Translations under genes and position numbers: made by a program
The notes under the pieces: model-generated
Database searches by the model: none
What the model was told of the DNA's origin: nothing
What the model saw: only the letters and a program-made list of their open reading frames with translations
In this document: piece by piece, positions 1,086 through 60,113 of the stretch
How positions within the stretch are numbered: position 1 is the stretch's first letter
How the letters are laid out: each line of letters starts with the position of its first letter
From: Stictocephala bisonia
Taxonomy: Eukaryota > Arthropoda > Insecta > Hemiptera > Membracidae
Reading direction: 5' to 3'
Assembly: GCA_035578905.1 (NCBI GenBank)
Contig: JAQJVL010000200.1
Coordinates: 62,001 to 126,000, forward strand
DNA: 64,000 nucleotides

Positions 1086-30076
<28,991 letters not shown>

Positions 30077-34255: not shown

Positions 34256-34504
34256 CTAATTAACTTCTTTAGTTATTTTATTTGAAGCATTGCAAACATA
34301 ACAACTGTAGGAAAAGTTGGTCCAGCACTCTTTGCAGTAGTATGAGTTACACACCTCACATCTGTGATAAGGAGTTGACCAGAAAAGGAAAAGAGCTTCT
34401 TCCTCCTCACAGATGGCACACCTTGGACGAGTGGACGGTATAATCCTCAAAATAAAACACCTGGGGTAGCGCTTCTGTAGGCGCCAGAGACATTTCAGAT
34501 CAGA
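34256..34504 (-). CDS. DC-STAMP gene last exon: C4C4 RING-like domain
   Basis: Acceptor TTGTTATAG, phase 0, stop TAG at 34256-34258. Encodes SDLKCLWRLQKRYPRCFILR, then a zinc-binding pattern: CAIC, an acidic stretch, CEVCNSYYC, KECW and CYVC. Eight cysteines in C-x2-C pairs agree with the C4C4 RING-like end of DCST/SPE-42 proteins. The protein ends KEVN. Confidence 0.93.
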   Translation of the reverse strand, partial: SDLKCLWRLQKRYPRCFILRIIPSTRPRCAICEEEEALFLFWSTPYHRCEVCNSYYCKECWTNFSYSCYVCNASNKITKEVN

Positions 34505-37500
34505 CTATAACAATAAACTATTTTCTTGGTGTCATATAAACAAAGTAAAATAATTAAAAGGAGAAAACTGAAATAAACACTATCAACATAACAACATTGA
34601 CTATAGGAACAAGAAGATTGTCCGCTTATATGGATCCCATGTAGCATGAGTGGTATCCCTCTCTATCTCTCTTTATACTTTTCTCTCTATCTAGGACACA
34701 ATGAAGTGACTAATAACTGACCTGATAGTAAGCGAAATAGTCGTCTTAGTGTTTATATGTGACCATTCACCATTAGAGATAGCAGTACGGGCGAGCGTCT
34801 GCAGCAAAAGCATTGCCTTGGTCTGTATGTTTGTTTCTATAGTCAATTGATAGCTAAAAATTGTATACATTTTTTTTAACTTTTCAGTTAAAAATAAATC
34901 TGTTCATAATCTCACAAAATTTTTGAGGCTTACCAAACTTTTTGAAATTTGTATTCCACCTTTTTGGTTTTTTTTACCAATTTTTTTAAAAGATTAATCT
35001 CATGTTAACTGGAGCTGCTGAGGTTGGCTGATGTCAGTTTTGTTAGCAAAATACAAATCATCTTATAGATTAACAGAGCAGAGCCAACATGGGCGAGGTT
35101 TAAGACCACTGTGGCGACATGCCTGTTCTGAAGCTGGTGCCACAATCAGCTGAACAACAATACAAGAATAATATCAGCATGACACTGAGGTCAGGAAATT
35201 TGAAGAGCAAAGTATATTTGCTTCAAGCCTGCAGGGGGAGGGGTAAGATAAAATTAAGGGGTAGTGATATGGGTGCGAAATTCAAATTCCTTATCACATA
35301 CTTGAAGCTATACTCTACAAGATGATAAGGTGAGAGGTGGAGGGGGGCAAGATAAGCTTGCCAGTTTCAATATACACTCTCAATGGAGCAGTGGCCTTAC
35401 ATGGTTCAAGAGGTCCCGTGAAGACTGCCAGCGTCAAATCATAGACAGATAATAAGACTTGAATAATAATTTAGTTTTATACATATTAAAAAATCACTTC
35501 CCGTTTTATAGTTATTATATAAAATTCATATACATTGTAAACAAAGCTGTTTGCTGATATTAGTCAGTGTTGTATCCACGGACTCTGATTCATTAGTTTC
35601 AGTTCCCTTGCCCGATTTAATTAGTTGATAACATTAAGTAGTCTAAACCACTTTTTTTAATTCTAAATTCAATATTTCTGGTCTATGACGCTCCAGAGTC
35701 CAATGCACCAACAAATGCCAAGCCGTATACTTGAGCATTTTCTGGTTTGAAGATAGCTTCCATTCAACACGTGATTTCTAGAAAATCCCTCATCACCACC
35801 TACTGCTCTTTGATCAATAAAAAAGAGATGGTGATCAAACACCTGCAACCATCAATTTGCACTGATTGATTAAGCGTGCGACTCACCTATACAATAAATA
35901 TGTTACATTTATTGTTTTTTAAACTAAATAAAAATGTATATGATATTGGTTGCTGTCTCAAAATACTGATTAATTTTATAATAAACAAGACAGGTTTAAT
36001 ACTGACTGATTCACTGGACTAATCTAGGAGTTAATATGTTAAACGTAGATTTGACATGCAAGGTATGTATGTAACAGGCGTAAATTTATAATATTTTTAA
36101 TTATTTTCATATTCAAACATGCAAATCAGGTGTATAGCTTACATTGTATGTCGAGCGCTAACAACTTCATCAGTTTAAATGTACTTATTTATTTATAGTT
36201 TGAAAATAATATAGAGTCATTCATGGTATTGTTTACTAGAATCTCAGAAAATGTTACCTGCACTCTTAATTTTAAACACAAAAACTAAGTTAACATGTTA
36301 CCTGAATTTCAATATTTGATGCTCTTTTGTATAAAACTTCAATTTGCCGATCAAACAGCTGTTTTCGATAATTCAGTGTTTTGCTATATAGAGTTTTTAT
36401 TCTTTGTTTTTCTTGCTGAAAACAATAAAATCACAGTAAGTTTACTAAGACAAATATTATCTATTCTTGAAAATATGTGTGAACATTTTTTATTGATTTA
36501 GTTAAAATTAATAAGAATCTATAATATTTCTACCTTTTCTACTTATAGTGAAGTAAATTTTTGTTTTGTGATGTTCCTTATTTTGTATTTCTATCAACAA
36601 ATAACATGCTAGTTAAAAAACCATTTAATCTATTTTATTTCCTAGGCTAAAGTGGCCGGTATCATTACTAAAAACTAAAGCTTCCGGTAACGACCACGTC
36701 AAGGTGTTATTTGCAGTATTTACATCACCAAACATTTTGCCCATGCTGTGATGTGGCATCCTCAGGGGGCTAGTTCCTACACTCTCCAACTTAGGGCTTA
36801 CTGAGCGTTCATTCTCCAATCTAGTATTTACTTACCTGATCTGGAGAGCGTAGCTCCAACTTGGGACTTACTAGACCTACACTCTACAACTTAAAACTCA
36901 CTTATTGGACCTACACTCCTCAACTTAGGAGTTACTACTCATTTAAGATAATGGACACACCTGGCCAAGTCACCTTAGATCGTGTGAACCAGCACTATGC
37001 ACAACTACCCAGTGAAAATAGGAAATTTTCTTTTCAACACCATTTGAGTATTTCCCTGGAGAGTTGATCAATAAACAGAAAAGTGTAGTTTCCAATCCAA
37101 CGAAAGCAGCCTATGGTTTGAAATCCTTGGAAGAAATAGGTTTTACTTTAGTGTTTTCGATCTAAAATTTGTAGAAGTTGAAATGGCACATGGCGTTAGA
37201 CTAGGCACTTGGTTGTGGTGTGGAGTCTTAGTGAACGACTGTTGTGTTGTTACCTTTGATTCTGAACAGGGTGGAAAACAAAAAATTGAAAGGTTCATGG
37301 ATATGGACTTGGCTTTGTGATTGGACACATACTTTCTTTTAACAAATGAAAATATTAATATGCACAGATAAGCTGGCTAACAAACAAAATTGTATATTCT
37401 CCACTTGTCTATGGATAGTATTTTTATTGATTTTATTGCAAAACAATTTGAAAAAATAATATACATATTATGTTTTTTGACTGGTTAAAGGTTGTGCATC

Positions 37501-40500
37501 ATCAACAAACTTGAGCTGTTCATGTATGTTTTCTGCCAAATGCATATTACTAATATTAGTAAAACAAACTTTTTTTTTTTTTGTATGTTCATCCCACTTG
37601 TTAAAATATAAATAAATGAGACATTCCTGCAAAAATCTTGTGCTAATCCTACTATTTACTAAATTGTCTATACCTTGGCCTTTAGCCTATCTACTTCAGC
37701 CATAATTTGGATTCTCATCTTACAAAAGGATTAACAAAGAATGTGTTATAGGTTGAGTAAAATTATATTGTCTCCTGAGTGATTTGGTATGCACAGGGAA
37801 TGAGTATGACACACTTCTTTTCAAAAGGAATTTCTTTTCCTGAAATAACTATTGAGATAGAGAAAAATGCAGAGAAACCAAAGTTGTAGAGAATGTAATT
37901 ACTGCCTTTAAAAACCCATCATGTTTTAATTTCGAGCAACTCTTTTTAAAGTACAGCCCAAAAATGCACGCTGTACACAATCTGTTTCCGCCTACCATTT
38001 TACTTATAACTAAAAAATAGTGTTCATGAATTTTTTCATGAGATTTCAGGGAGAGGGCTTTAACTTAAGTATAATATGAAGAAGTTTGGATGCTAGAGAG
38101 CTTCAAAATGTTGATGAATAAGTCAGGGTAAATGGTATCAGGTAGCTTTTTACTATAAAATATTTTAAACATAAAGTTATGAAAAACTTGCTGAACCTTA
38201 CCTCAGAATAGTAGTAGGTACAGGTAGATCCCCTTAATTGGTAGAACCTTACCTCAGGATAGTAATAGGCACTATCCTTAATTGATATCCTTAATAGATA
38301 TCCTTAATTGGTTGAACCTTACCTCAGGGTAGTAATAGGCACAAATAACTTGCCTTAATTGGTTGAACCTTACCTCAGGGTAGTAATAGGCACAAATAGC
38401 TTGCCATAATTGGTTAAATCTTACCTCAGGGTAGTAATAGGCACAAATAGCTTGCCATAATTGGTTGAATCTTACCTCAGGATAGTAATATGCACAAATG
38501 GCTCACCTTAATTGGTTGAACCTTACCTCATGATAGTAATTGGCACAAATAGCTCGCCTTAATTGGCTGAACCTTACCTCAGGGTAATAATAGACACAAA
38601 TAGCTTGCCTTAATTGATTGCATCTTACCTCAGGGTAGTAATAGGCACAAATAGATATCCTTAATTGGTTGAACCTTACCTCAGGGTAGTAATAGGCACA
38701 AATAACTTGCCTTAATTGGTTGAACCTTACCTCAGGGTAGTAATAGGCACAAATAGCTTGCCATAATTGGTTAAATCTTACCTCAGGGTAGTAATAGGCA
38801 CAAATAGCTTGTCATAATTGGTTGAATCTTACCTCAGGGTAGTAACAGGCACAAATAACTTGCCATAATTGGTTGAATCTTACCTCAGGGTAGTAATAGG
38901 CACAAATAACTTGCCATAATTGGTTGAATCTTACCTCAGGATAGTAATATGCACAAATAGCTCACCTTAATTGATTGAACCATACCTCAGGATAGTAACA
39001 GGCACAAATAGCTCGCCTTAATTGGCTGAACCTTCTCTCAGGGTAGTAATAGGCACAAATAGCTCGCCTTAATTGGTTGAACCTTACCTCAGGGTAGTAA
39101 TATGCACAAATAGCTCGCCTTAATTGGCTGAACCTTACCTCAGGGTAGTAATAGGCACAAATAGCTCGCCTTAATTGGTTGAACCTTACCTCAGGGTAGT
39201 AATAGGCACAAATAGCTCGCCTTAATCTTCTGAAGTAATTCCCAACCAGGCCCATTAAAACCAGAAAGAAACACATTGAGTACAATCTGATATAAAAAAA
39301 TGTATTCATGTACTTTGGATGAGGAAGGCAATCTGAAACAAAACTTTACTTACAATGTTAACCAACTTTATCCAGCCTAGGTTAAAAATGTTAATTTTGA
39401 CAAAAATATAAAAAAAGGAAAATCTATGAGGGGGTGATGTGTTAGATAAATTAATTAGTATGTATTAATTAGTTTTATAACTTGGGTAAAACAAGTTTCC
39501 TATCGTGTTAGATAGTGACTAAATCATATTAATAATGTAAACTGCTGTTTAATTTAACTATTGATCTTTATTGAATTTATTTAAACATTTTACGTTGTTA
39601 TTCCATGTACTTACGTTTATTAGAAACTTCTCCTTTCAACGTTTTCTTGAAATGAAATCCTTTTATTATTGACCTGACAATATTAGCCACAAAGCCCATG
39701 CCTTTGACTTCTACATTAAAGCTGTGAAGCCCTAAAACAAATAAATTCAAAGTAAATGACTTGGTAAGTAAGTACAATATTTTGTGATATAAATGATTTT
39801 GACTATCAAGAAATTTTCCAAAGATATATTATCAGAGAATAAATCATATAAATACCATAGTTGAAACATGTACAATTTACATAGTTTGTATTTAGTTGAA
39901 AAAAGATTATTTTTGAAGGACTGAATTAACAATTGAGGTTTAGATAAAGCAAAATGTGTTCAGCTGCCAAAGCGCTTTAAAAGAGGCATCTTTCAATTTA
40001 TGGGAATATTTTAAATTGTCCTATCCTTAACACCATACATGTGTGGGTGGGTCAATAATACTGCGCTTGTTATTGACCCACTCACACATGTATGGTGTTA
40101 AGTATGGGACAATTTAAAATGTTCCCATAAATTGAAAGATGACTCTTTTAAAGCGCTTTGGCATCTTTCAAGGGCCACTTTCCACTACCTGTTTCAAGGG
40201 CCTCCTTTTCCTCAATAACAAACACCAAGGATGCTCAGCCAAGACCCTACCTCTATCTACATCACCGTCATCCATCCTAACCTCATGTATGCACAACCAA
40301 TCCTTACCACCATCCCCGACAAACACCTTTCCAGCCTGGAAAAATATGAGCGATGCCCATGCGCCTATCTTAACACCGGGACCCCCATCGCAGCTCCCAG
40401 AATCCTTTAAACTCTGCTCCACATCCCGAACTTACGTGAGTTCCTTAACCATATAAACCAAAATTACCTGCCAAAGCCATTTATACTCCTCATGGCAGAG

Positions 40501-43500
40501 TACTTTATACCACAAACCCTTACTTCACCATCAACCACCTGATCCATGGCCAGTTCTGATCCAATCCCCCCCCCCCCCCAACTAGCCCTCCAACGTACAA
40601 CACACGCAACACTGACTCAGTTCCCCCTCTCTCCTCGTCCACTCCTCATCAGACAACCCTAAAAGCATAGTTAGCCTTAAACTGCTATTGCAATCCCCAT
40701 ATTCTTCCTTGTGTTTCAGTCCTCTGTTCCAGGTCTGATGTTTCCTTAGGGCCTTTTCTCTAGGGACCCAAGCTGTCTGCTTGCCTCATCATCTACCCAT
40801 CTATTCCTATCCTAGGGTGATGAGGCCCTTGTGGCCTACAACAGCCGTATCCCAACCCGATCATGCTCAAATTCATAATATCAAAAAAGTGGATTGTAAA
40901 ACAGTTGCATTAAAAGAACTGAAACATGGCAACAATGCTAGACGTAAAAACCTTCCTATTGTTGCATCTGGTTTACATCACCATGCCACTTGACCTAGTT
41001 TTTACCACTAGTTTTAGCAATTGCTGTAAGAGAGCTTTGAAATCAAGTCAGAACATTTGTTAAATTAAGTATTCATAATTCAATAATATATTATACAACA
41101 ATTTCAAGTTTGGTTTATTCAATAAATGGATAAATCATACTTAAAACTAAAATATGAGTTGTTATTTATGAAACTAATATTTACCAGATTCCATATAAGA
41201 AAATGCAAGGTTATCTCTCATCCATTCTAAAGCCATCGTTAATGATTTATCAATGAACACGACTATAGTAACAACAATAATCATTGCAAGAATTGTCCAA
41301 AACTCTGTCATCTAAAACAAAATCATTAATTGCCTTTTCATTTTGGTGTATTTAAATACTATACAAAATTAATATACTCTATATTAATTTAAATTATATT
41401 CTTTAAAAATCTAATGAAATCTGCAAGCTACCAAGACTTGCAAATTTATCATTCAAAACCAACAAATATGTTCTACACTGAATAAAACTATAATTCTGAT
41501 AAATATCCCATAGCTAATTGCTCTATTGAAAATTATAATCAGCTGATTTATTTATGAGTCTTTAAATAGTACGTACGATTGTAGGATCAGTAATTTAGAA
41601 TATAGAAAATAATGCTGTGTACATAAACATATTTACTTAACTCACCCAGGTTTTAATTTCTAGTTTAGCCAATACTAGGTCATATGGATCAATCAATTTG
41701 TTTTTTTCAATTTTTGTTAGTGGAAGAACTGTTGGCTTTTTTGAGATACGCCTTCTGGCATCCAAAACTCTAAAGCTTTCTGTAATATAGACGTTATCAT
41801 TGTCGAGGGTTTTTATATAACTAGTGTGGTATTTTGCAGCACTGAAATCAATACAAACTACATTAAAATGACAAAAAAAATTCAAATCCATATTTACAGT
41901 AAAATCATGTTCCATAAAGACCAAAAAGTCTGTGAACAGCATTTTCTTTTATGAACCACTACAGATTAAGAATTTATACTTAAAAAATCAATTTTAAAGA
42001 GAAAATACTTGTACTTTTTGAAGCAACAAAAATTTTTCATCACATCAGGGGACGGCCCACAAATAATTGGAGAAAATCTTAAAGCGTAAGTCAAATTGTA
42101 AATCAAATTAAAAGTCTTTTATCAGCTGGAACTTTAAACTACAGGAATTAGAATAGTATTTTTGTGTTTCTTGTTACCATTTTGCCCATGTGACATCATA
42201 GGAAATGCGTGTAATACCTACTGTCTTTTTGCTAAGGGTACCGTGACCACAATACACCTTTGCATTATATAGATGCCAGTAGGTACATGTTTTGTATTAC
42301 TGAATGCAAAAAGCACAATATAAATCAACCTAAACCCCGTACGAAGGACGGGTACTCTGCTAATAATACATATTAATGAACTAAAATCTACATTTTCCGG
42401 TGACAACCACGTCAAGGTACTAAATGTAGATTCTAGTTCATACTTGTACCTTGGCGCGGTTGCACCGGAAAATGTAGATTCTAGTTATGACACCGGCCGC
42501 TTAAGCCTAAGCTCTAAGACATATTTAATGAAATTAATTTTTCATATTAATAATCAAATAAAAATGATTCCAAAATACACACACTACAACTATGTATGCA
42601 GTTCACTCACGTGTACAACCAGTCCACACCCCATCCCCACCACTACTGCAATCCTCGTAACAATAATCCCTTATAATTGTTAATAAAAGAAAGCTGTTAC
42701 CGATTTCAGTCAGATAAAAACGTTATAAGTTTGGTGGTTGTGCTAATAGATGACAACAGTGACATAGATGCAGGTGGTTGTGACGCGGTGGGTCCCAAGC
42801 CCAATCTGTGCATCTGGCAGATCCATCTTTGCATCTTTGTAGTAAAGCATAAAATAAATATATTTAAAGCATAAAAGAAATATAATTCAAGCATAAATTG
42901 ATGATAAATATTTCATCAAATTTATCTCTCATTATGTTTGATGACACCTGCCCATGTCATCAAACATCATCTTCTATGAATAGATAAACAAATCTCTTGA
43001 AATTAAATTATTTTATTCTTTAAAAACATGAAATTTAAAAACAAAATAACTATATTCAGCTTACCTGCTGATGACCAAAATGAACATGAATGCCAAAACA
43101 GTTTTAACAACTGAAACAATAGCATCGGCATATGACTTTACAGTAAATATTTCATGGGTGAACTCCTTCGTGATTGTTATAACAGAAAATACTCCAACCT
43201 GTAAAAAACATTTAAGTGGTTCCAGATTTTATACAAACGTAAATAAATAAATAGTTTAGTAGTGATTATGTTTAACTGTTACCTCATAGATGTTAAAGTT
43301 AATATTAAAGAATAAATGAATGAATGGATGTCTTTATTGAAAGGTGGAGTTAGGACTATTAGGTCTTCTCCATGAAACCATACAACAATGTAAAAATATA
43401 ATTTCAAATAAACCAAAAATAAAATTAAAAACACTCAATTTTCAAAGTGAAAACTAATCAAAGACAATATAAAAGTTAGTAACAATTATAAACATGAAAC

Positions 43501-46500
43501 TAATATAATTTAACATTTACTAAAAATCTAATAAACTTATAAATTAACTCAATATAATCAAAATTAAATCCATACAGATTCATTCTTTCAGATAATCTAA
43601 CATGAAACAATTCCCCTCAACAACCCCATCACGCAAGCCCTGCAAAAGCAGGTGCTTCAAACCCGCACTATCGTCCATATTTCTCAAACTATCAGCATGA
43701 GAAGATTCCTATCGAGTGGCATGAAAATTTATCTGAGAAAAAAATTTTAAACAATCAAATATGTGTACCTAGGTTAACCAGTTTTTAGTACAGCGTGGAG
43801 GAAAGTAAAAATGAGAGCTTGATACTGTTGGAGTTCCTTAAGTTTAAGGAGAGATAGATAATTAAAGAAGACATGACATAAGTTTCACGCCTTAAATTGA
43901 AGATGAAACTTATATAATAATTCTTTGAATGCTGTAACTTATCATAGAGTTCAACAGTCATGTCATCGTACTGAACTGCAGAACTTTAAACTCTGTTTAG
44001 AGTTATGAATTTTTAAGGTAAAACACAGAGGCAGACAGTTAGGTGTTAAATGCAAAAGAGGGGAGGAGGTCAGACACTTTTAAGTAACCATCCCCACCCT
44101 TCCGCTGTTTACTGGGAAATCTCAAGGAACGAGTCTCCTGGAAGTCAAATTCTGGATATACCCTTGATCTGCACTACTCCTGAGATTCAATTAAGTTAAA
44201 AGACTATAATCAACTCAGCAAAGTTTACAAGGGCATATTATTGGAATAAATGCAGGACTGATTTGGTTTGAATCGGTTTATGTTTTAATTAATTTTGTCT
44301 TGAAATAGTTGTTATACAAATATTTGACTTTATTGTGGTAAAACAAATAATCATAATCACAGTAAATACAAAGGTATTATAGCTCTTAATAATTTAAGAT
44401 GTCAACAACAAAAATTAAAAACATAATCCGAATGTAACTCTAGCAATGTGTCTACATTATTCAAAATAAGAATTGCATTGGTATAAGTGTTCAGAGAATT
44501 GAATTAAGCACTGAGTTAAAAATAGTACACTAAATATATACTAAAACTCAAGTACAATATTTAACTTTGGCAAATGTGTATTATAAATATTTGTTATAAA
44601 AAACTACACTACTGGATCTAATGCTTGGCAACAAACTATTTAACCATTCATATTTTTTAAGGCATCTACTACACTTGTTTTTTTTTTTTTTTTTTTATGA
44701 AATATTTATGTTCAATTTAATTTGAATTTACATTAAATTCATCTTCAAAACCTGAAATAAGGTAGATATCTTGAAAACACGATATTTGGCTAAAATCATA
44801 CTACAATGCATTTCTTATTTAATCTATTCAGCTATTGTACTATACAGACAAGCCTTACTAAATTAGGAGGATCCTTCAATTTGTACTGCATTCTCTCTTC
44901 GGCCACACCTTCCCGCATTGTTTTACCTGCACCCAACAGTTTGACGTACCCATTTCCGATTTCACCACTCACCACTTGTTTGGGATCACAACTATACCCT
45001 CCATATGTAAATACTGAAACATTTTTTTTTAAATCAATTTCTTTTACAATTTACATAAAGGAGGAATATTTAGAATTGACTTATGGATTATTTGGCCCTG
45101 AATGTGTAAATAGCCAGTGCTTAAGGTTTAATTAGCTGTGTTTAAATTTTTGTTTATTTCTATGATTGTTAGCAAGCTCTCTTAAAAACTGCATTTTAAC
45201 ACACCAAATTTATTGGTATAAATTCCCTTGGACAATTTAACCATTATTGATTAATTATAATGCTTTTTCGAGGTTGGCAAACTTAATTTGGTCTTTAAAA
45301 TAAATTACCAATTAATTTAATGTGGTTATTAAAACAATAGGTAGACTGTGTCATGTAACCAGGAAGTACCGAAGTGGAGGATCGAAAGAGGAAGTTCAAG
45401 GGGGGGGTAAAAATGTGGAAATTTTAAATCCTGTAACAAAATCAACATTAAAGACAGCTTAATTTATCAACAATGACGACAGACATTACAGAAACGGACC
45501 TCATTGTACGCACAGTGAAGGGTGTTTGGCTAACACTGTCGCCTGCTTATCACAGCTGAGCTTGTGCTGGCTACATTTTGACCTGGAACAGTTCATGTTA
45601 TACAGCAGATAAATATAATTTTGTCAGATTAGATTCAAAATTCTAATCTTACTAGCATATTTAGTTTATTTAAAAAAATAACACATCTGTTTAAAGTGAC
45701 TGATGTAAGTAAATAAAAGTATAGTATTAATATCAATAACGTCATTAATGACATTATAGTTTTACTTATGTTTATTTTTTATGGGTGGTGAGGGGATATA
45801 ATTTGACTTTAACAGGGGGCAGGGGGTTCTGATCCTAAGTTATACTAATGTAGCTACACCACTGCTGTGTTATAAGCCTCTGAAAGGTTTATAAACACTG
45901 CTAATGTTTTCTTTTTCTTTTCAAACCCTTTCTCAATCACGTTACAAAGTAAGTACCTGGTTGTAACAACTTCTACCAGGTCTAAATCTAGCTTATTCAA
46001 CAGGGCTGCTTTCTTTGAGAATAGATTATATTCATTTATAAATCAGCCTCTTCAACAACTTATAGCAGACACTTAAAGATATATCAACAGTAAATTTTAC
46101 CTTGTTTGGTTCTTTAGTTGACTTTAAATAATTATTATTTTAGGTCTTAAAAAAATGTATGCATTTCTCCACTTGAAAATAAGGAATTATGAATGTTATA
46201 AGCCAATGTTTTATCGAAGTATTATCACTATGTTTTATAAATGCCATAAATATGTCAGGCAGCTGCCTTCCCAACTGTCAGAACAGTGACTGCCTCATGT
46301 AACTCTTAGACAGTAAATGATCTTGAAACCTAGCGTGCTCACCGTTAAGCTTAGTTTTCAAAGTAAGGACTAAACCTGTCGGCTCCTTTGGGGCTTAGTT
46401 TAGATCGATCTCTCTGTTTTAATTTTCATCTTCAGTTTTTACCCTGGGTTACCCACCCCACTGTTGAATATTGTGGGACAAGAATATGCATATTTGAAAG

Positions 46501-49500
46501 TTTGATTTTCAACTAAATAAGGTAATAAGGACTAATACCATTGCAACTCTTCTATCATGGCTTCCTGTAATGTGCTCCCTCAGTGTTTTATTCCAAACAA
46601 AAAATGCAGATTGTAATAGCCCATTTTAATGATTTCGGGAAATCAAACTTTACCAAAAACATGAGGTGAGTAGAGCCCAAATTTTTACATCATGGTCGTC
46701 CCAGGTCAGTTCTCAATGTCAGTTAGGGATTGGTGAAATATTACGCTATGGCTTCAAGGTTAACTTACAACACACAACGCAAGATGTTTTTATTCACAAG
46801 TAAGGATAGTGAATAAAAACATTACAGTACGCTAATGAATTACAATGATTTTCCTCTCTATAGTACACTAATGGATTATGATGATTTGTCCTCTCTTTAG
46901 TGTAGTGTACGCTAATGGTTTATGATGATTTGTCCTCTCTTTAGTGTAGTGTACGCTAATGGTTTATGATGATTTGTCCTCTCTTTAGTGTAGTGTATGT
47001 CATTGGATTATGATGATTTGTCCTCTCTTTAGTGTAGTGTACGCTAATGCATTATGATGATTTGTCCTCTCTTTAGTGTAATGTACGCTAATGGATTATG
47101 ATGATTTGTGTAGTGTAGTGTAGTGTAGTGTACGCTAATGGTTTATGATGGTTTTCAGTTCATGAGAGCTTACAATTTACTAATCTCTAGTGAGCAGGAA
47201 ATTGATATATTTTTTGACCCTCCAAACATTTTTAAATCAAAATGCCTAACAGCGTTGAGTTTATTAAATGTATAACTATTTTTATTTTTATACCTTGTTG
47301 TAAAATAATCTTGTTATCTGATGTATGTTGATTACCATTTTTTACTGTATTATTATTATTTATTTATTTGTTTTTGTTTTTCATATGTATTTATGTGTAT
47401 GTATATATATATGTGTGTATGTGTATGCGCGCTTAAATGTTGTTAAGGTTAAATTGTATTTCTTACTGTTTGCATTTGGTTATTAGAAATGATCAGTCCC
47501 TAATTTATACAATATTAAGTTACTGTTATGAATCTTCAGAGTAGGCTATATTTCTCATTTGTTATTTATTATATTACTGTATTTATTATTACTTTTAGGT
47601 TAAAGCATGTCACTGTTGGTAATATTTTTAGTTATTTATTTAACTTATCTATTAATAAGAGTAATATTATGTGCATGAAGTGAGCTCAAGAAACCCCAGC
47701 ATGAACTTTAAGAATAAATTGAACTGCTTTAGTGTAATTGGTTTTGTAAACTGTTCTAAAGCATGCAAATAAAATAAAATAAAAATAAAAAATAAAAATG
47801 ATGATTTGTTCTCTCCATAAAGTTAGGAAAAAGTTATATAGAGGCAGATTGGGAGCTAAAGATTAATTTTTAATCAGTATACATTTAATTCTTGTTCTCA
47901 ATAGTGAAATAAAAAAGAGGGAGAACTACTACAACATTTCTGCAATAGAAATATCTACTGAGACTATATAAATGTTGAAACATTTGGCAAGACTTACGAT
48001 AACAAAACTGTAACATATATGGGCACAGTCTTGCTATCAGGTTGGTAGGACCAATATCTAGATCTAACCATAGAAGACCTATTGGGATGCTATATCAAAT
48101 TAAAATAGTTGGATTGAAAATGTACACTACTGAATCAAATGCAAAATATTCTATTTCATACAAAAGCTTTGTCCATAGTCCAATGTTGTATGCAGTGAAG
48201 TTTTGCCAATTTTATGACATTTTCTTCTGTGACTTTAAACAATTTGTTTTAATAGGAGGACTTTCTTTTAATTTTTCAACATGACAGGCATTCTTTCTTA
48301 TTGTTTTTCAGCCTGATAATATGCTACAAAACTTGAGTTATTTATATAACAATCTAATAAAAAACAACTTTATTATAATGTTGTACTATTTTACAAGCTA
48401 AGAAACTTGTAAAATAGTACAACATTATAATAAAGTTGTTTTTAATAATAAACATATTATTATTTTTTTTTTAAGTGTGATAGTATGTAATTCAATGAAA
48501 ACTGAGAATATTTTCAAAACATCCCTGGACTAATCATAGTAATTAATTATTAAAACATTTATAATACTATAAAATATGACATAGATGAAATAATCATTAA
48601 ATTGGCTTATTTGATTTAGAACTTACCTTTGACAAGATCACAGATAATACTCAATTGCATGGGCCAACACACAATCCACGAGATGGACCAATGTACTGCA
48701 TCCTCACAATTAGCTTTGAACTTTGCAAATCGCTCCCTGCACATTCTGCCCATACCAGTTTTTACATCTAAACAAAAACATAATTTAAGGAAAAATCCAG
48801 CAAAATAGTATTTTAATACTCAAATAAAGTTTGTAAGGTGTGTATGATCGACTTTATTCAAAAGTTGTCTGAACACAGTTATTAACTTTGTTAATTTCAT
48901 GCAGGGTATATGTAGAAATTATTTTATATAAAAACATTGTAGCAGTGACCAAATGTGATATTTAAAATATTGATACAGAAGTGGCATCAGCAAACATAAG
49001 TCAACTAACACAATAAACAGAAATACACAAAGAAAAAACACATAACACAAATACTCAGTGCCATACCTGATTTAGAAGATTATTGTATCTTTAACATATC
49101 CATTTCCTATCTAAAATTCAAGAGTCATAAAAAAATATTTATGATTATCTTAAATATGAGACACAAATACAACTTTGTGCGTATTTCAAGGTGAACATGA
49201 ATGATTACATGAGTGCAGTATGTAAGAGGATGACATGGTAGTCTGGTTACTAACTGAGGTTGACTGTTCCTCAGAAAGGGCCGTTTATTAATAGCCCAAT
49301 AGCCAGAGCAGCTAAGTGACCTACAGCTTTACATGGAAACTGAACCACGTAGTATTGGTCTTTACAGCTAATTGAGGAGCCTGATACTAAGTTCTCTCTC
49401 TTGCACAACATCCAGACACTGACTACCATCCAACCTGGACACCCTAGACTCTAGTAGTTTCCACGCTGATAGAAACCATTGAGTGGACGCTATATGTTGG

Positions 49501-52500
49501 TATTAAGACGACCGAGCATAGAATCTATTGCTTTAATCTCCACAAAACTTTGACCTCAAATAGTTGCAGCACTGCACTTCTAGTGTAGACAGTATAAGTA
49601 TTGACAAATCACTTAAATTTACATCATAAGTATTTTTTTTCTTGAGTGGATAGGAGGAAAATGACATACATTCAGAGCTTCAGAGGCTGTCAGCAATGTT
49701 ATTTTATTTTTATTTATTTAATTTTATTTATGTATAATAATCATAGACACCTTATACGCTAAAATAGAGCTAGGCAGATGACTTGTCAAGTTACAACAGT
49801 GAAATAAAACAAAATAAAACAACAATAAATATATAACAATCATAGATGAGCAGCTAAAAATATATACACCAAATAAGCAGTTTCCACTATTGATAAACCA
49901 CCAGTCCCGACGTGGAATACAGGTGGAACCAAACATGGACACCCCAGACTTCTCTAGCAGTGTCCACGTCGATGGCAACCATTGAGGGGATGCTGTGTCA
50001 ATACTAAAAGGACCAAGCACAGACCCTATCGCTTACAATCTCCTCAACACTTTGTCCCCAAGTAGCTGGGTTACAACACAGCGCCACAAGTACCAATGTA
50101 TTTATTATATTTTTTTGCCATTATAATAATGGAGTGAGATTTCAATTAATTGAAAAGTAACAGCTGTTCAAATGTAAATAATGATCTTTATAACAGCTGT
50201 TAGAATGTAAATAATGATGTTTCATAATTAAGGAGGTTAGAGCTTTCATACGTTCAATAGGGTAAGTTTGTATATATATATATATATATATATATATGCT
50301 AAATAATAATATTTGGTGTTTACATCAATAAATTAATAGTTAGCAATGCAAGTGTAGTGAATGAAATAATGATTTATTTTTTATAAATAATAACAACAAA
50401 ATTACAATATACTTATTTGAAAATACTAAACCATCTTTAACCAGTTGTGATGGTTTAGTAATACATAAAGAATACATAGCTTAGAGTGTACCTTAATAAA
50501 AAAATAAATAATGTGATAAGCCTGTGCAGCATCTTAACTTAAACAGAATTTACACTTCCTAATCGTTAAATAACAAACTAATGAATAAAAGATAATTACC
50601 TAATAAGCTACTCTAAATAAATTTACATATGGTTTTACTTGACATAGTGTACCTACTAATATTTTAAGTTAATAAATTAAGTCACAGACCGAAGCCGAAG
50701 CCCGAGTTGTCACGAGCACAGCAAGTAATGGGGTTGGCATGCAAAGCATGCATGGTTGTCCCCTAGTAATTCATAAATAGGTGAATTTACAAAGGCCAAG
50801 TTTAATACCATATAAGTAAAAATAAGAAGGATGGCAATACAAGTTTTAATTATTTTTTAAACATTTTGAACAAAGGTTTGTTGAATATAGTTTTGAATTA
50901 TGTAATATAAGCATTTTGTACTTACTTTCACACCTGGTTTCCAATTTTTTTAAATACTTCTGCTGATATTCATCTGCCATTTTTTTCTGTTCAGTAGAAT
51001 TTTTATCAAGAGTGTCAATTAACATGCTGCTGGCATTTTGATTTGTTTCATCATCCTCCCTTTTCCTTCTTTTTATTAATGATTTATATTTATTTTTGAG
51101 TTCATCACTTCTTTTTGTATCATTCTAAAAAAATTTAATGAAAAACAATTGATAGTTTTAAAAACTGTTTACTTGTCTGTTCAGTTTCTTTGAGGTAGTC
51201 AAAGTGTGTGGAACTAATGCTAGATCCCTGTGTAGGGATTAAACCGTCGACAAGTTGAATCCCTTGTATTGTGGAAAATTAAAAAAATCTGGTCAGTCCA
51301 AATGATGTCTGTTACATAATTCATTTTTACCCTATGCTTTGTAATTGACATTTTTTTATAGTACTGGAAATAATTTCTTGGTATTTTCTAGGGTATTTTT
51401 TAAACTCAAGACAGTATTTACTTGCTGGAATTCTATGTAGTAAATTACATTTTACAGCAAAATTTCTTAATAAAATAAAATAAACACATATTATATTGTA
51501 ATTACTTTTATCTACTAAAGTAACATATTTTAAATATGCGTAAAAAGAAATATCAAAACCAAAGCAATATCTAAAACCTTTATTCTCTAAAATCCAGGAT
51601 ATCAAATATTAACACGCCAGCACACGCACCCTTTTTTCTATGTGAGGACACAGACAACTGCAATCTGCTCACACATTACTAACACACCAGCACATGCACA
51701 ACGACAATCTGCTCACACATTAATAACTAATGCTTTACGTAATTAGTAGTATTTTGATATTTGAATACATACAATATTGATATTGGAATACAAATTTAAT
51801 ATTTACATCTTCTATAGCTGTAAACATAATATCGTGTTGCTATATTTGAAAAAAGAGTGTAGCTTATTCTAAATTTGACAAGGTAAAATTACTCCATTAT
51901 ACTCAAAGATAAAAATATAAAATATTTACTAACAATGGTAAACCTACATCACTTTGATGTATTGAAGAACTAAGAAAGTGTTCTACATATTTAAAACAAA
52001 AAATAACTTAATTACATTTGAGTTAGTAGTTACATTGAGGTCACTTACAAGTAACCTTGCAGCCCTCGAAGAATATTTTAGAACCTGGAAGCTGAATCCT
52101 AACCCATCAAAAACCGAAGTAGCCTGCTTCCACTTAAGTAACAGACTGGCTAATCGAAAACTGAACATCTTCCTAAATGGTGTAAAACTTCATCATAATG
52201 AGCCTCCACAGTACCTGGGAGTAATGTTGAGATCGATCACTGACCTTTAAAGGCCATCTTTAAAAACAGCAGCTAAAATTAAAACCAGGGCAAATGTATT
52301 ACATCATATTGCTGGAACAACTTAAAGAGCCAACGCTCACGTCCTGTGTACTACTGCTTTATCACTGGTCTATTTAGCTGCTGAATATAGTGCTCCTGTT
52401 TGGCTTAATGTGTTCATACTAAACCGGTCAATGTCCAACTTAATAAGGTCATGAGAGCTATTAGTGGCACTCTCATGTCAACTTCACTTCCTTGGGTCCC

Positions 52501-58500: not shown

Positions 58501-60113
58501 ACAAAATAGGTTTTGTTTACATTTTCTTCTTTACAGATATATTTTTTAAATTGAAATTGTCTATTCCTGGTGTATGGACTTTGTTCGGTGACGTAAGTTA
58601 CAGTGTCAATATAAAGAACAAAGTACAACAAAAATATAAAACTCACAGATTGCTCACAGTGCATTCATGATTGTTTTTGGGATTAATCTATACATCAATT
58701 TAAAACATAAGAGGTGTTGCAGTGAGCCACTGACCTATATGCGTATGCAGTCTGCACTCAACCCCGACGGATAAATACATTAATAACACTAGGATTTAAC
58801 TACAAATATTTTCATCTATGACGTAAGAAAAAGTGTTGCCTGTTGCATGTGTGCTGTAATTGAAATAATGAACTTTGTATTTCTGTCCTTTGAAGTGAAA
58901 TTTCATATTTGAATACTTAGATTTCAAATATTTCTGATAACATATATATCATGTTACTGCATGACGGAGAACTACATAGCCCATGTATGTACGTAATTCA
59001 GTTGTTTTCATCCATGTACTTTTGTGCCATCAGTGAACAAGACAAGGAAGATCCTTCAATCAATTAGAAAATATTCACTCTGCACAATTCCAAAAATTGT
59101 CACCCCCAAGATTACAAACAAAAAGCTAAGGAGCTTACTAAGGTGTCAAGACATCCCAGTATGCCCCCTTCCCTTCCCCCGTGTTTTATGGTCTGTAGGA
59201 ATGTTTGTTTGCCACTTTGTAACCTAAAAAAAAGCAAACTTTTCTTCTATCAATCAAATAACAATGCTCCTTAGCCGCATACAAATGGAAAGTGATCATT
59301 TGATGTGCTACTGGACATGAAAATTAAAATAAATTAATACTTAAAAATTTGTTACTATTATAGCTAAAGGTGTTAATTGTTAATAAGCTATTGTTGGTTT
59401 TTCCTGCTAAATATTGTTTATCTCAGAATTGTTTATTTTATGTTTGTTTAGGCTAGTAATGCAACTTTTAATGCATATATCTTTCATCATAATTTGTTAT
59501 GTTTTACAGTATTTATTAATGCACATGTAGCCTAGTGCTTAGCTATAGTTATTACAGATTTTATGTCCAATTTAATTTTTCTTGCTTTTTTTCGTTTTCT
59601 TGTTTTTTTGTTTTCTTTCTTCATTTCTTTTAAAAAAACTTCACTCACCAGTTCACATGGGTTTGCAAACCTTTGCGTGAACTTTATTCCACGAGTGAAG
59701 TACCGACCGTTGGCTCAGTGGGGATTCGAACCTTGGAACTTGCCCTCTGCAGTCCGAAGCCTTAGCCACTACGCCAGCAAATTGTTTTTATTATTATTTT
59801 GTTTTTAGCTGTGGAGTTTATTGTATATATTATTATTGATGCATTTCACTTGTTTGAATCTACATAAATAATAAATATGTCGTAGCCATGTTGTTGCCAC
59901 AGTAGGTTATAAGCTCAATTTTTAAAAAGGGTGTAAACCGTAAACAATATAATAAATAAATACTCTGACAGACAACTTTACCTGCTCCTGGTCCATATAA
60001 TCATTCTCTTCTTGAATATACTTGACATCATCAACACCTTCTATTTCCTGAGAAAAGGGCTCAACTACATTGTCCACAGAGCCAAGCATGTCTCTAAGCT
60101 CTTCAGTATTCAT
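34256..60113 (-). CDS. DC-STAMP domain-containing protein (DCST1/sneaky/SPE-42 class), 11 exons, 5' end missing
   Basis: DCST proteins are multipass membrane proteins of sperm; sneaky in flies and SPE-42 in worms act in fertilisation. Exons on the - strand: 60113-59982, 51124-50926, 48767-48627, 45013-44859, 43198-43065, 41841-41646, 41311-41185, 39731-39615, 39332-39190, 36415-36302, 34504-34256. All junction phases agree, giving about 568 residues. Landmarks in order are a charged coiled segment, a Cys-rich loop with IVCWPMQLSIICDLVK, KYHTSYIKTLDNDNVYITES, RRRISKKPTVLPLTKIE, a membrane helix (FWTILAMIIVVTIVVFI), a helix followed by YFRRLRRAICAYYYPE, QEKQRIKTLYSKTL, and a C4C4 RING-like end. 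These match the DC-STAMP family order. The N-terminal helices are not in view. DCST1 versus DCST2 is not settled; the ARRR-PTVLPL segment leans to DCST1/sneaky. The gene converges on the myosin, about 4.2 kb apart. Confidence 0.9.
36302..36415 (-). CDS. DC-STAMP gene exon: QEKQRIKTLYSKTL
   Basis: Acceptor TTGTTTTCAG, donor ATTCAG|GTAACA, phase 0-0, 38 codons. Encodes QEKQRIKTLYSKTLNYRKQL and FDRQIEVLYKRASNIEIQ. It matches the family's R-E-K-x-R-x-x-x-L-Y-N block, which directly follows the YYYPE motif, so it shows what the upstream donor must join to. Confidence 0.92.
36640..36720. repeat. Partial copy of the 42378 palindromic MITE
   Basis: Shares GGCCGGTATCATTACTAAAA, then TTCCGGTAACGACCACGTCA and AGGT, with the arm at 42378-42510 (GGCCGGTGTCATAACTAGAA on the - strand). 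Confidence 0.5.
36945..37320 (+). pseudogene. Frameshifted coding-like segment, family not recognised
   Basis: Three + strand frames succeed one another without overlap. First MDTPGQVTLDRVNQHYAQLP SENRKF; then FFSTPFEYFPGELINKQKSV and KAAYGLKSLEEIGFTLVF; then VFDLKFVEVEMAHGVRLGTW, LWCGVLVNDCCVVTFDSEQG and FMDMDL before a stop. The composition looks protein-like, and frame changes without gaps suggest a decayed gene or retrocopy. It lies in a DC-STAMP intron on the opposite strand. Confidence 0.5.
38190..39250 (-). repeat. 51-bp minisatellite, 20 copies, each with a 5' splice site
   Basis: On the - strand each unit reads about 34 nt of exon end (AAGGCGAGCTATTTGTGCCT, then ATTACTACCCTGAG) plus about 17 nt of intron start (GTAAGGTTCAACCAATT). 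The copies that would end an exon fall at 39190, 39139, 39088, 39037, 38986 and so on, every 51 bp to 38323, then at 38253 and 38202. The copy at 39037 has lost GT (GAGAAGG); the other 19 keep GTAAGG, GTAAGA or GTATGG. Read as protein a unit is LRRAICAYYYPEVRFNQ, 17 residues. Confidence 0.95.
39190..39332 (-). CDS. DC-STAMP gene exon: last helix and RRLRRAICAYYYPE, followed by splice-donor array
   Basis: Acceptor TTGTTTCAG (an alternative TATATCAG 46 nt further in breaks the phase), donor CCTGAG|GTAAGG at 39190, phase 1 in and 0 out. Encodes CLPHPKYMNTFFYIRLYSMC, a helix, and YFRRLRRAICAYYYPE, the conserved motif that closes the membrane region. Its last ~34 nt with the donor are the founder of the 51-bp tandem array that follows. 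The frame stays open through five copies to a TGA near 38962. Confidence 0.92.
39615..39731 (-). CDS. DC-STAMP gene exon: VEVKGMGFVANIVRSI loop
   Basis: Acceptor TTGTTTTAG, donor AATAAAC|GTAAGT, phase 1-1. Encodes LHSFNVEVKGMGFVANIVRS and IIKGFHFKKTLKGEVSNK. The V-x-G-x-G-F core recurs in DCST proteins ahead of the final helix. Confidence 0.92.
39967..40163. mobile_element. Near-perfect palindromic MITE
   Basis: GCCAAAGCGCTTTAAAAGAG on the left pairs with CTCTTTTAAAGCGCTTTGGC on the right. The inner arms hold CACCATACATGTGTGGGTGG and its complement. About 95-bp arms with a small loop near 40065. Lies in the DC-STAMP intron. Confidence 0.85.
40168..40422 (-). other. GC-rich coding-like frame, family not recognised
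   Basis: 84-codon - strand open frame with a protein-like composition (GSCDGGPGVKIGAWASLIFF, VFVGDGGKDWLCIHEVRMDD, EHPWCLLLRKRRPLKQVVES). The surrounding 40160-40850 is much GC-richer than its neighbours and carries a poly-C run near 40567. It starts right after the palindromic MITE. Possibly a transposon piece; not a DC-STAMP exon, as phases and family do not fit. Confidence 0.4.
41185..41311 (-). CDS. DC-STAMP gene exon: membrane helix
   Basis: Acceptor TTTGTTTTAG, donor GAATCTG|GTAAAT, phase 0 in and 1 out. Encodes MTEFWTILAMIIVVTIVVFI, a clear membrane segment, then DKSLTMALEWMRDNLAFSY. Confidence 0.93.
41646..41841 (-). CDS. DC-STAMP gene exon: core DC-STAMP domain
   Basis: Acceptor GATTTCAG, donor ACCTGG|GTGAGT, phase 2 in and 0 out. 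Encodes AAKYHTSYIKTLDNDNVYIT, LDARRRISKKPTVLPLTKIE and KLIDPYDLVLAKLEIKTW. The order Y-H-x-x-Y, D-N-x-Y-I-T, R-R-x, L-P-L is the most conserved stretch of the family. Confidence 0.95.
42378..42510. mobile_element. Palindromic MITE
   Basis: CTACATTTTCCGGTGACAAC and, inverted, GTTGCACCGGAAAATGTAG flank a CCACGTCAAGGTA/TACCTTGGCGCGG stem. A related partial copy is at 36640-36720. Confidence 0.65.
43065..43198 (-). CDS. DC-STAMP gene exon: helix before YHxxY block
   Basis: Acceptor TTTTTTACAG, donor ATCAGCAG|GTAAGC, phase 0 in and 2 out. Encodes VGVFSVITITKEFTHEIFTV, then a hydrophobic membrane helix (VVKTVLAFMFILVIS). Confidence 0.9.
43300..43460 (-). mobile_element. LINE 3' end-like fragment
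   Basis: On the - strand it ends CAATAAAGACATCCATTCAT and TCATT repeats, preceded by a conserved-looking TGGTTTCATGGAGAAGACCT. No coding sequence was identified upstream on that strand. Confidence 0.4.
44859..45013 (-). CDS. DC-STAMP gene exon: loop after the Cys cluster
   Basis: Acceptor ATGTTTCAG, donor AATTTA|GTAAGG, phase 1 in and 0 out, exactly bridging the flanking exons. Encodes FTYGGYSCDPKQVVSGEIGN, then GYVKLLGAGKTMREG and a basic QYKLKDPPNL end. It was found by phase matching; alone it looks like an unidentified open frame. Confidence 0.85.
46840..47150 (+). repeat. 44-bp tandem repeat, about 6 copies
   Basis: Unit close to GTGTAGTGTACGCTAATGGT followed by TTATGATGATTTGTCCTCTC and TTTA. 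The last copy ends in GTGTAGTGTAGTGTAG. Sequence like one more part-unit (ATGATGATTTGTTCTCTCC) reappears at about 47797 beyond a LINE-like 3' end. Confidence 0.85.
47155..47800 (+). mobile_element. LINE 3' UTR-like insertion
   Basis: AT-rich noncoding sequence ending in AAATAAAATAAAATAAAAAT and more A/T. It interrupts the 44-bp tandem array, with ATGATG on both sides as a possible target duplication. Confidence 0.5.
48360..48443. repeat. Perfect 38-bp inverted repeat with 8-nt loop
   Basis: Arms 48360-48397 and 48406-48443 are exact complements (38 of 38), for example TAATGTTGTACTATTTTACA against its complement, with loop CTAAGAAA. No coding sense. Could be a tiny MITE. Confidence 0.9.
48627..48767 (-). 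CDS. DC-STAMP gene exon: conserved Cys loop (CWPM)
   Basis: Acceptor TTGTTTAG, donor GTCAAAG|GTAAGT, phase 1-1. Encodes VKTGMGRMCRERFAKFKANC and IVCWPMQLSIICDLVK. The spaced cysteines with the CWP-hydrophobic-C pattern are a hallmark of DC-STAMP proteins and the best single identifier of the gene. Confidence 0.9.
49193..49380 (+). repeat. Dispersed repeat D copy 1
   Basis: Matches 61370-61545 in reverse orientation, sharing GAATGATTACATGAGTG, TAGTCTGGT, TCAGAAAGGGCC and the CTTTACATGGAAAC-like region. Probably a SINE-sized element. Confidence 0.7.
49410..49590 (+). repeat. Direct repeat pair, copy 1
   Basis: Shares an order of blocks with 49885-50095: CTGGACACCCTAGACT, TCCACGCTGATAGAAACC, ATTGAGTGGACGCT, CCTCAAATAGTTGC. 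Diverged; no coding sense seen. Confidence 0.6.
49885..50095 (+). repeat. Direct repeat pair, copy 2
   Basis: Second copy: ATGGACACCCCAGACTTC, GTCCACGTCGATGGCAACC, ATTGAGGGGATGCT, CCCCAAGTAGCTGG. Confidence 0.6.
50265..50297. repeat. (TA)n microsatellite
   Basis: Uninterrupted TATATA run of roughly 30 bases in the DC-STAMP intron. Confidence 0.9.
50926..51124 (-). CDS. DC-STAMP gene exon: charged coiled segment
   Basis: Acceptor TTTTTTTAG, donor TGTGAAA|GTAAGT, phase 0 in and 1 out. Encodes NDTKRSDELKNKYKSLIKRR, a highly charged helical stretch, and ends KKLETRCE. This suits the extracellular loop that precedes the conserved Cys cluster. Confidence 0.85.
51985..53050 (+). pseudogene. Non-LTR retrotransposon fragment nested in piggyBac
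   Basis: Encodes a reverse transcriptase thumb (LAALEEYFRTWKLNPNPSKT, LNGVKLHHNEPPQYLGVML), a thumb/RNase-like region (RHQEALLKEFNKIWNALHIP), and a Cys/His tail with CDCG and a shifted HIVTECPLRHF. Stops and shifts break it. It lies between the piggyBac end at 51609 and the transposase. Confidence 0.85.
53787..55890 (-). pseudogene. piggyBac transposase pseudogene
   Basis: Starts with ATG at 55890, but the sixth sense codon is followed by an in-frame TGA. An acidic N-terminus follows (ISDVDETNIIENCNNVSDSE), then after a frameshift near 55480 the DDE_Tnp_1_7 core (LGLLYLAGVCSSNVQNMLDL, FRLTMGVNRLKFLLQKLRFD). More stops occur at 54811 and downstream. The C-terminus holds a Cys-rich zinc domain (CSICPRRKNRKTTVVCSSC, CERC). 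It cannot make transposase as it stands. Confidence 0.9.
56560..57710 (+). pseudogene. Retroelement-like pseudogene (HVLTGCPIALKEGRFTWRHD)
   Basis: Several + strand frames together follow a protein commonly found 3' of reverse transcriptases in animals: LPDQRNLKRWGLSEND, ALHVLTGCPIALKEGRFTWR, HDRVLGIITEEL, a shifted TVPWETK-like block, a shifted VEVGARG-like block, and an end resembling a Ser/Ala-rich helix with W. Stops and shifts are frequent. The family recognition is from memory. Confidence 0.65.
59631..59780 (-). repeat. tRNA-derived SINE, family A copy 4
   Basis: Same body and box B. The head lacks about nine bases that other copies carry near GAGCCACC. Lies just downstream of the 60-kb DC-STAMP exon, in its intron. 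Confidence 0.83.
59982..60113 (-). CDS. DC-STAMP gene exon (5'-most seen)
   Basis: On the - strand the acceptor TTGTTTTAG precedes ATGAATACT, and the donor is GAGCAG|GTAAAG, phase 0-0. Encodes MNTEELRDMLGSVDNVVEPF, then an acidic stretch ending DYMDQEQ. Membership of the DCST gene is inferred from strand, phase and fit to the loop before the coiled segment; a ~8.9-kb intron separates it from the next exon. It could be an internal exon or hold the start of a shorter form. Confidence 0.7.

What the first reader, a model, noticed from the sequence alone, without database searches (positions are those of the whole stretch)
38190..39332. A minisatellite made of an exon end plus its 5' splice site, repeated 20 times in a fertilisation-family gene
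Seen: a 51-bp unit (about 34 nt of exon, about 17 nt of intron) is repeated 20 times directly after the DC-STAMP exon that ends RRLRRAICAYYYPE. Nineteen copies keep a GT donor (GTAAGG, GTAAGA or GTATGG). The unit length is a multiple of 3 and the frame is open through five copies, so donors at 39139, 39088 and 38986 would add 17, 34 or 68 residues, each a repeat of VRFNQLRRAICAYYYPE; the copy at 39037 has lost GT. Later copies lie beyond a TGA at 38962. Known: the next exon (QEKQRI) joins in phase 0 at each donor. Inferred: this may be a splice-site array that varies a membrane-proximal segment, or buffers donor use, in a fast-evolving sperm protein. A passive satellite is also possible.
Basis: partly seen in the sequence, partly recalled or inferred. 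Interest (0 to 1): 0.88.

Follow-up and report, generated by a model that had tools for sequence, protein, structure and literature searches.

The report
Repeated splice-site minisatellite in sperm-fusion-family gene
In a gene related to insect sneaky, of a family needed for sperm-egg fusion elsewhere, the end of a predicted exon and the start of its intron are repeated in tandem, so that 19 predicted splice-donor sites stand in one array; the first likely makes the normal protein and the others are predicted to be mostly passive competitors, much like a repeat known from the human IFI6 gene.

Summary
A 51-bp unit (37 nt of exon end, 14 nt of intron) is repeated on the minus strand at about 39226-38191; of 20 exon/intron borders 19 keep GT. 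Donors 39189, 39138, 39087 and 38985 keep frame (+0, +17, +34, +68 residues); the 15 later ones include a TGA. The gene looks real: eleven collinear exons match a profile of relatives; DC_STAMP scores 165.7 bits.

The adaptive reading is not supported: donor columns vary as much as the rest (4 of 9 against 18 of 42), 19 GTs kept is passive expectation (P 0.30), and the repeat shows no coding constraint; power is low. Of 187 relatives fetched, 174 cover the junction and none has an insertion, so the first donor makes the family-standard protein. One genome match and a 357-bp block duplication fit a minisatellite.

Closest precedent: the human 6-16/IFI6 minisatellite with multiple splice donors (Turri 1995; seen only as a reference). 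A new, longer-unit member of a known kind; donor use in RNA is untested.

The parts
39190..39332 (-). Predicted exon (143 nt, phase 1 to 0) encoding the last part of the DC_STAMP domain; ends ...RRLRRAICAYYYPE
   Evidence: Pfam DC_STAMP match, profile 132-182; relatives' profile 546-593, i-E 6.6e-12; acceptor ...gtttcag, donor GAG|gtaagg
38191..39226 (-). 51-bp minisatellite: 37 nt of exon end + 14 nt of intron per unit; 20 border copies, 19 with GT (lower end approximate)
39184..39189 (-). Donor 0 (GTAAGG): the predicted canonical donor
   Evidence: Joins YYYPE to QEKQRI without extra residues, as in the 174 relatives that cover the junction
39133..39138 (-). Donor 1 (GTAAGG), in frame, +17 residues
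39082..39087 (-). Donor 2 (GTAAGG), in frame, +34 residues
39031..39036 (-). Lost donor (AGAAGG)
38980..38985 (-). Donor 4 (GTATGG, weaker U1 pairing), in frame, +68 residues
   Evidence: duplex -6.3 against -10.1 kcal/mol
38962..38964 (-). In-frame TGA; the 15 later borders (38934 to 38201) include it
38253..38322 (-). Scrambled 70-nt unit, from its GT up to the next GT; shifts the frame of the last two donors
38296..38883 (-). Block duplication inside the array: 38526-38296 resembles 38883-38653 (offset 357 nt = 7 units, 95.7% over 231 nt)
36302..36415 (-). Next predicted exon QEKQRIKTLY..EIQ (phase 0)
   Evidence: i-E 0.013
34256..34504 (-). Last predicted exon with paired-cysteine RING-like tail and stop
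   Evidence: profile 635-710, i-E 1.1e-10
39615..39731 (-). Predicted exon GLHSFNVEVKG..SNK
   Evidence: i-E 5.7e-9
41185..41311 (-). Predicted exon MTEFWTIL..MESG
   Evidence: i-E 0.0074
41646..41841 (-). Predicted exon SAAKYHTSY..EIKTW
   Evidence: i-E 1.3e-23
43065..43198 (-). Predicted exon VGVFSVIT..LVIS
   Evidence: weak profile match (i-E 0.12)
44835..45050 (-). Open stretch holding an upstream exon (profile 307-355); exon ends not fixed
   Evidence: i-E 1.8e-5
48619..48819 (-). Open stretch holding an upstream exon (profile 263-303); exon ends not fixed
   Evidence: i-E 3.4e-10
50849..51124 (-). Open stretch holding an upstream exon (profile 205-261); exon ends not fixed
   Evidence: i-E 0.0008
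59925..60113 (-). Open stretch holding an upstream exon (profile 176-219); exon ends not fixed; earlier exons not found in the window
   Evidence: i-E 9.6e-8

Best explanation
This is a minisatellite whose 51-bp unit copies the end of a predicted exon and its 5' splice site in a DC-STAMP family (sneaky/DCST-like) gene; splicing likely goes on using the first donor (39189), and the 18 other GT copies are predicted to be mostly passive competitors that would now and then add 17-residue repeats or run into a stop codon. Inferred origin: slippage or unequal crossing-over between the similar words TTCAGAAG (exon) and TTCAGCAAG (intron), which hold the same place in the unit at the two array edges, gave the first duplication; unequal exchange then lengthened the array. 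Because the unit is 51 nt, splicing at donors 39138, 39087 and 38985 would keep frame; donors from 38934 on would take in the TGA at 38964-38962, at least 141 nt upstream of the last exon junction, and so be predicted targets of nonsense-mediated decay. Shown: array, GT copies, frames, stop, gene context, no detectable selection signal on the donors. Inferred: origin, donor choice, rarity and fate of longer products.
For: Array and 19 of 20 GTs. Donor columns -3..+6: 10 minor letters in 9 columns (7 of them at +6) against 46 in 42; variable columns 4 of 9 against 18 of 42; 34 of 51 circular 9-column windows, and for the core -1..+5 14 of 51 6-column windows, vary as little or less (18 clean borders of 20). 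GT kept in 19 of 20 where 17.6 are expected passively, P(>=19) = 0.30; 30 of 50 dinucleotide positions are kept as well or better. 24 distinct variants in 17 units, scored one change at a time: 8 synonymous, 15 not, 1 stop, against 23% synonymous expected, P = 0.17. Block duplication at 357 nt, 95.7%. TTCAG words at both array edges. One match of the array in the own genome (a capped first look). Of 187 relatives fetched, 174 cover the junction and none has an insertion there. Of four isoforms compared, only the first-donor product has DC_STAMP unbroken to its end (97-191). Eleven exons collinear from profile position 176 of 753.
Against: No RNA evidence, so first-donor use is inferred. 18 of the 20 borders, the first included, pair with U1 at -9.6 to -10.1 kcal/mol, so competition is expected. 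In the one fold of the native exon copy long enough to show it, the first donor pairs with exon sequence upstream (9-bp stem, z -1.66, 15 of 200 shuffles as good), which might weaken it. Two of five borders in the open-frame block are damaged or weakened against none of 15 beyond (Fisher P = 0.053, a comparison chosen after looking). Units 1 and 3 are identical to the exon end over 36 nt, which recent expansion or selection could both explain. The selection tests have little power because the copies share ancestry. The gene is only 32-36% identical to its 20 best-scoring relatives.
Confidence: 0.7

Rival explanations
1. A functional donor ladder: regulated or individually variable choice among donors 0, 1, 2 and 4 varies the length of the cytoplasmic segment after the last membrane helix, and later donors act as a poison tail that lowers output.
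For: 51 is a multiple of 3; four borders keep frame; equal U1 pairing at 0, 1 and 2; units 1-3 differ from the exon end by 0, 1 and 0 of 36 nt, later units by 2 to 4.
Against: No donor conservation, no coding constraint detected, no insertion in the 174 relatives that cover the junction; 15 of the 19 GT donors would be non-productive.
Confidence: 0.12
2. The AG|GT at each unit border also works as an acceptor, so pieces of the array are removed as mini-introns of n x 51 nt or stepwise (recursive splicing), as in intron gain by AGGT tandem duplication.
For: The clean units end in AG and all but one start with GT; in the five units printed 10-11 of 14 bases before the border are pyrimidines, as many as or more than in the gene's own acceptors (8-10 of 14); the AGGT duplication model and fission-yeast AGGT repeats are in print (PMC4974935, passages).
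Against: Units end in GAG with 5-6 T of 14 in the five printed; the gene's seven predicted acceptors end in CAG or TAG with 8-10 T of 14; 51 nt is near the lower limit for an intron (recalled).
Confidence: 0.05
3. The gene is losing function: the array already pushes most transcripts to the late donors and the gene is drifting towards a pseudogene.
For: Low identity to relatives, 32-36%; 15 of 19 GT donors lead to a stop; intron-proximal donors are favoured under SRSF1 in some human genes (PMC5585400, passages).
Against: The exons placed from 43198 on are open, with GT donors and AG acceptors, and the cysteine tail is kept; the DC_STAMP search of the genome, a lower bound, shows no other sneaky-like gene.
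Confidence: 0.08
4. Assembly artefact.
For: Reads were not available; copy number could be mis-assembled.
Against: Units 1-17 differ from one another (mean identity 90%, a few pairs identical), contig of 1.53 Mb, array about 1 kb in all.
Confidence: 0.05

Closest known systems
Human IFI6 / 6-16 (G1P3) minisatellite (Turri, Cuin and Porter 1995, NAR 23:1854)
   Same: [quoted passage not shown] a citing paper says two downstream repeat units serve as donors and three mRNA species result (PMC4526556, passage).
   Different: Unit longer here (51 bp; 12 bp there, recalled); different gene family; use of extra donors reported there, not tested here; here an in-frame stop caps the useful donors. The 1995 paper itself is not held and was seen only in reference lists.
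Internal tandem repeats at exon-intron boundaries of human segmentally duplicated genes (PMC2812944, passages)
   Same: Minisatellites at exon-intron boundaries that can change splicing; variable repeats there have on average 30-bp units repeated 4 times.
   Different: Human paralogues with transcript support, found by varying repeat number between copies; here one locus, more copies, no transcripts.
Intron gain by AGGT tandem duplication, incl. fission-yeast 24-bp AGGT repeats (PMC4974935, passages)
   Same: Tandem units bordered by AG|GT.
   Different: There a new intron arises from an exonic segment; here an existing 5' splice site is copied and unit ends are GAG, poor in T.
sneaky / DCST1 / DCST2 / SPE-42 / SPE-49 (PMC8989947, passages)
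   Same: DC_STAMP domain and cysteine-rich tail (intracellular in the relatives).
   Different: 32-36% identical to its 20 best-scoring relatives; array at the exon end.

Membership tests
Splice-donor minisatellite (IFI6 type) | Tandem unit spans an exon/intron border | tested here: met
   (border predicted from sequence and relatives)
Splice-donor minisatellite (IFI6 type) | Most units carry a donor consensus | tested here: met
   19 of 20 GT; 18 of 20 with U1 duplex -9.6 or better
Splice-donor minisatellite (IFI6 type) | More than one unit used as donor in mRNA | not testable with these tools
   no RNA data
DC-STAMP family, sneaky/DCST-like | DC_STAMP domain above curated cut-off | tested here: met
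   165.7 bits, cut-off 25, profile 2-191 of 191, on the exons joined by me
DC-STAMP family, sneaky/DCST-like | Cysteine-rich RING-like tail | tested here: met
   Four CxxC pairs in the last exon read by eye; profile match 635-710. No RING model passed its cut-off
DC-STAMP family, sneaky/DCST-like | Nearest relatives are sneaky proteins | tested here: met
   best by score: P0176 Aromia moschata 36% (named hypothetical protein / DC-STAMP domain-containing protein 1), P0160 sneaky of Halyomorpha halys 35%
DC-STAMP family, sneaky/DCST-like | Male germline expression and role in fertilisation | not testable with these tools
   reported for relatives (PMC8989947, passages)
Selected splicing device | Donor letters kept better than the rest of the unit | tested here: not met
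Selected splicing device | Coding constraint on the repeated peptide | tested here: not met
   8 of 24 synonymous, 23% expected, P 0.17; low power
AGGT-duplication intron gain | AG|GT borders | tested here: met
AGGT-duplication intron gain | A new intron is spliced between borders | tested here: inconclusive
   GAG ends and few T, but pyrimidine share no lower than in the gene's own acceptors; no RNA

The most novel reading that the evidence does not exclude
A hypervariable splice-donor ladder in a gamete-fusion protein: copy number and donor choice set how many 17-residue copies of a strongly conserved membrane-proximal motif are added, and a downstream stop turns excess donor use into a brake on expression, giving males different sneaky lengths or doses.
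Probability: 0.1. Interest if true: 0.78.

Novelty: new member of a known kind. Interest (0 to 1): 0.42.

Why it matters
It is a natural test of how the spliceosome chooses among near-identical 5' splice sites at 51-nt steps, with a built-in reporter: residues added, then a stop. It also shows a minisatellite seeded by a strongly conserved coding motif in a fertilisation-family gene. If the donors proved to be used variably, it would link repeat instability to the length of a sperm protein.

Tried and rejected
Donor conservation above background: rejected. Coding constraint on the repeat: no signal. Divergence of units from the exon end rising along the array: not significant (Spearman 0.33, P 0.19). 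Pfam scores of the isoforms with 0, 1, 2 and 4 extra units: the total score rises with repeats (98.6, 105.3, 111.3, 122.3 bits) because the motif is matched again, so it cannot rank isoforms; only the unbroken span was used. RNA folding: local 9-mer accessibility is low at every border (0.000-0.010 against a median of 0.019) and does not single out one; five unit folds have z from -1.66 to 0.58. The profile search (run without filters) gave 31 rows: 11 exons, 7 in the array, and 13 I dropped as chance (i-E 0.35 to 9). Paper searches bearing on such repeats and on the gene family listed the precedents named above and, in the listings and passages that I saw, nothing on repeats in sneaky; one search was on donor competition. 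C. elegans intronic minisatellites linked to splicing (PMC4039745, passages) are, as far as seen, another kind. PMC8830517 (passages) reviews repeat expansion in fertilisation proteins; the passages seen tell of none in DCST. Species: not identified; the mitochondrial marker search never ran. Flanking DNA beyond the window was asked for and not delivered.

Full report
Observation. On the minus strand, directly after the predicted exon 39332-39190, a 51-bp unit is repeated down to about 38191 (Tandem Repeats Finder, 18.1 copies, 91% matches). Aligned on the exon/intron border there are 20 copies: 11 GTAAGG, 7 GTAAGA, 1 GTATGG and 1 without GT (39036). The unit repeats 37 nt of exon (39226-39190) and 14 nt of intron. 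The unit from 38322 is scrambled to 70 nt, so the last two donors leave the frame.

Gene. The exons from 43198 to 34256, joined at predicted splice sites, give 359 residues with a full DC_STAMP domain, 165.7 bits (splice sites). A profile of 187 fetched relatives finds eleven exons in order, four of them upstream at about 60113, 51124, 48819 and 45050, from profile position 176 of 753 to the stop (three of the eleven are weak, i-E 0.0074, 0.013 and 0.12, and 13 further weak rows were taken as chance); the start of the gene was not found in the window. The 20 best-scoring relatives are 32-36% identical, the two best from Aromia moschata and Halyomorpha halys. The DC_STAMP search of the 1.68-Gb genome, a lower bound, gave two pieces of this gene and one other gene, a one-frame 759-residue ORF whose best matches, among the 71 relatives then on hand, are vertebrate DCST2. 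Relatives have an intracellular C-terminus with a cysteine-rich RING-like domain and act in fertilisation (PMC8989947, passages); for this gene that is inference.

Which donor is canonical. The relatives are those listed by three searches (one search listed 120 of 202 hits, and searches scored only the candidates sharing most words). Of these 187, 174 cover the junction and none has an insertion; three of the 174 have gaps of 4, 6 and 8 residues there. The first donor gives that spacing (YYYPE|QEKQRI). Two of the gapped relatives (P0105, P0111) end shortly after this very point with a V next, which would fit intron read-through at a conserved exon end (inference). Donors 39138, 39087 and 38985 would insert 17, 34 or 68 residues; the 15 later ones would include the TGA at 38964-38962, 141 nt or more before the last exon junction by the coordinates, which predicts decay.

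Selection. Donor columns are as variable as the rest: 4 of 9 against 18 of 42 (18 clean borders of 20; the two after the scrambled unit were left out). Keeping 19 of 20 GTs has P = 0.30 under passive sharing. 24 distinct changes in 17 units are 8 synonymous, 15 not, 1 stop; 23% synonymous expected, P = 0.17. Two of five borders in the open block are damaged or weakened against none of 15 beyond (P = 0.053, compared after looking): not a result, but told. These tests have little power, since the copies share ancestry.

Origin. The exon word TTCAGAAG and the intron word TTCAGCAAG stand at the two array edges in the same place of the unit; slippage between them would give the first duplication (inference). 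A 231-nt stretch recurs 357 nt away at 95.7%, as unequal exchange leaves. The array gave one match in the genome, itself.

Other readings. Each unit is bordered by AG|GT, so mini-intron or stepwise removal was weighed. The units end in GAG and hold 5-6 T of 14 before it in the five printed, against CAG or TAG and 8-10 T in the gene's seven predicted acceptors; but their pyrimidine share, 10-11 of 14, is no lower than the acceptors' 8-10. It stays a weak rival.

Precedent. The title of Turri et al. [quoted passage not shown] a citing paper says two downstream units are used as donors (PMC4526556, passage). Minisatellites at exon-intron borders of human paralogues are in print too (PMC2812944, passages), as is AGGT-repeat intron gain (PMC4974935, passages). 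So this is a new member of a known kind, notable for its long coding unit, its 20 copies and the built-in stop.

Verdict. Observation confirmed; adaptive reading unsupported but not excluded, since donor use in RNA was not testable.

Noticed in passing
54325-55290 (minus strand): piggyBac-type transposase (Pfam DDE_Tnp_1_7, E 1.9e-35; 'piggyBac' is recalled) between two exons of the same gene, broken into several open stretches.
   Followed up: no
46863-47154: A second minisatellite between exons of the gene: 44 bp, 6.6 copies, 89% matches; not at an exon border that I placed.
   Followed up: no
39960-40220 (minus strand): Long inverted repeat with two near-matching arms, looks like a MITE; seen by eye.
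   Followed up: no
L002:328-2607: One-frame 759-residue DC_STAMP ORF elsewhere in the genome, closest to vertebrate DCST2 among the 71 relatives then on hand.
   Followed up: partly
39230-39240 with 39185-39195 (minus strand): In the fold of the native exon copy UUACUUCAG pairs with CUGAGGUAA over the first donor (9 bp; z -1.66).
   Followed up: partly
28273-28689 (minus strand): Open stretch that looks like the end of a retrotransposon reverse-transcriptase ORF; by eye only.
   Followed up: no
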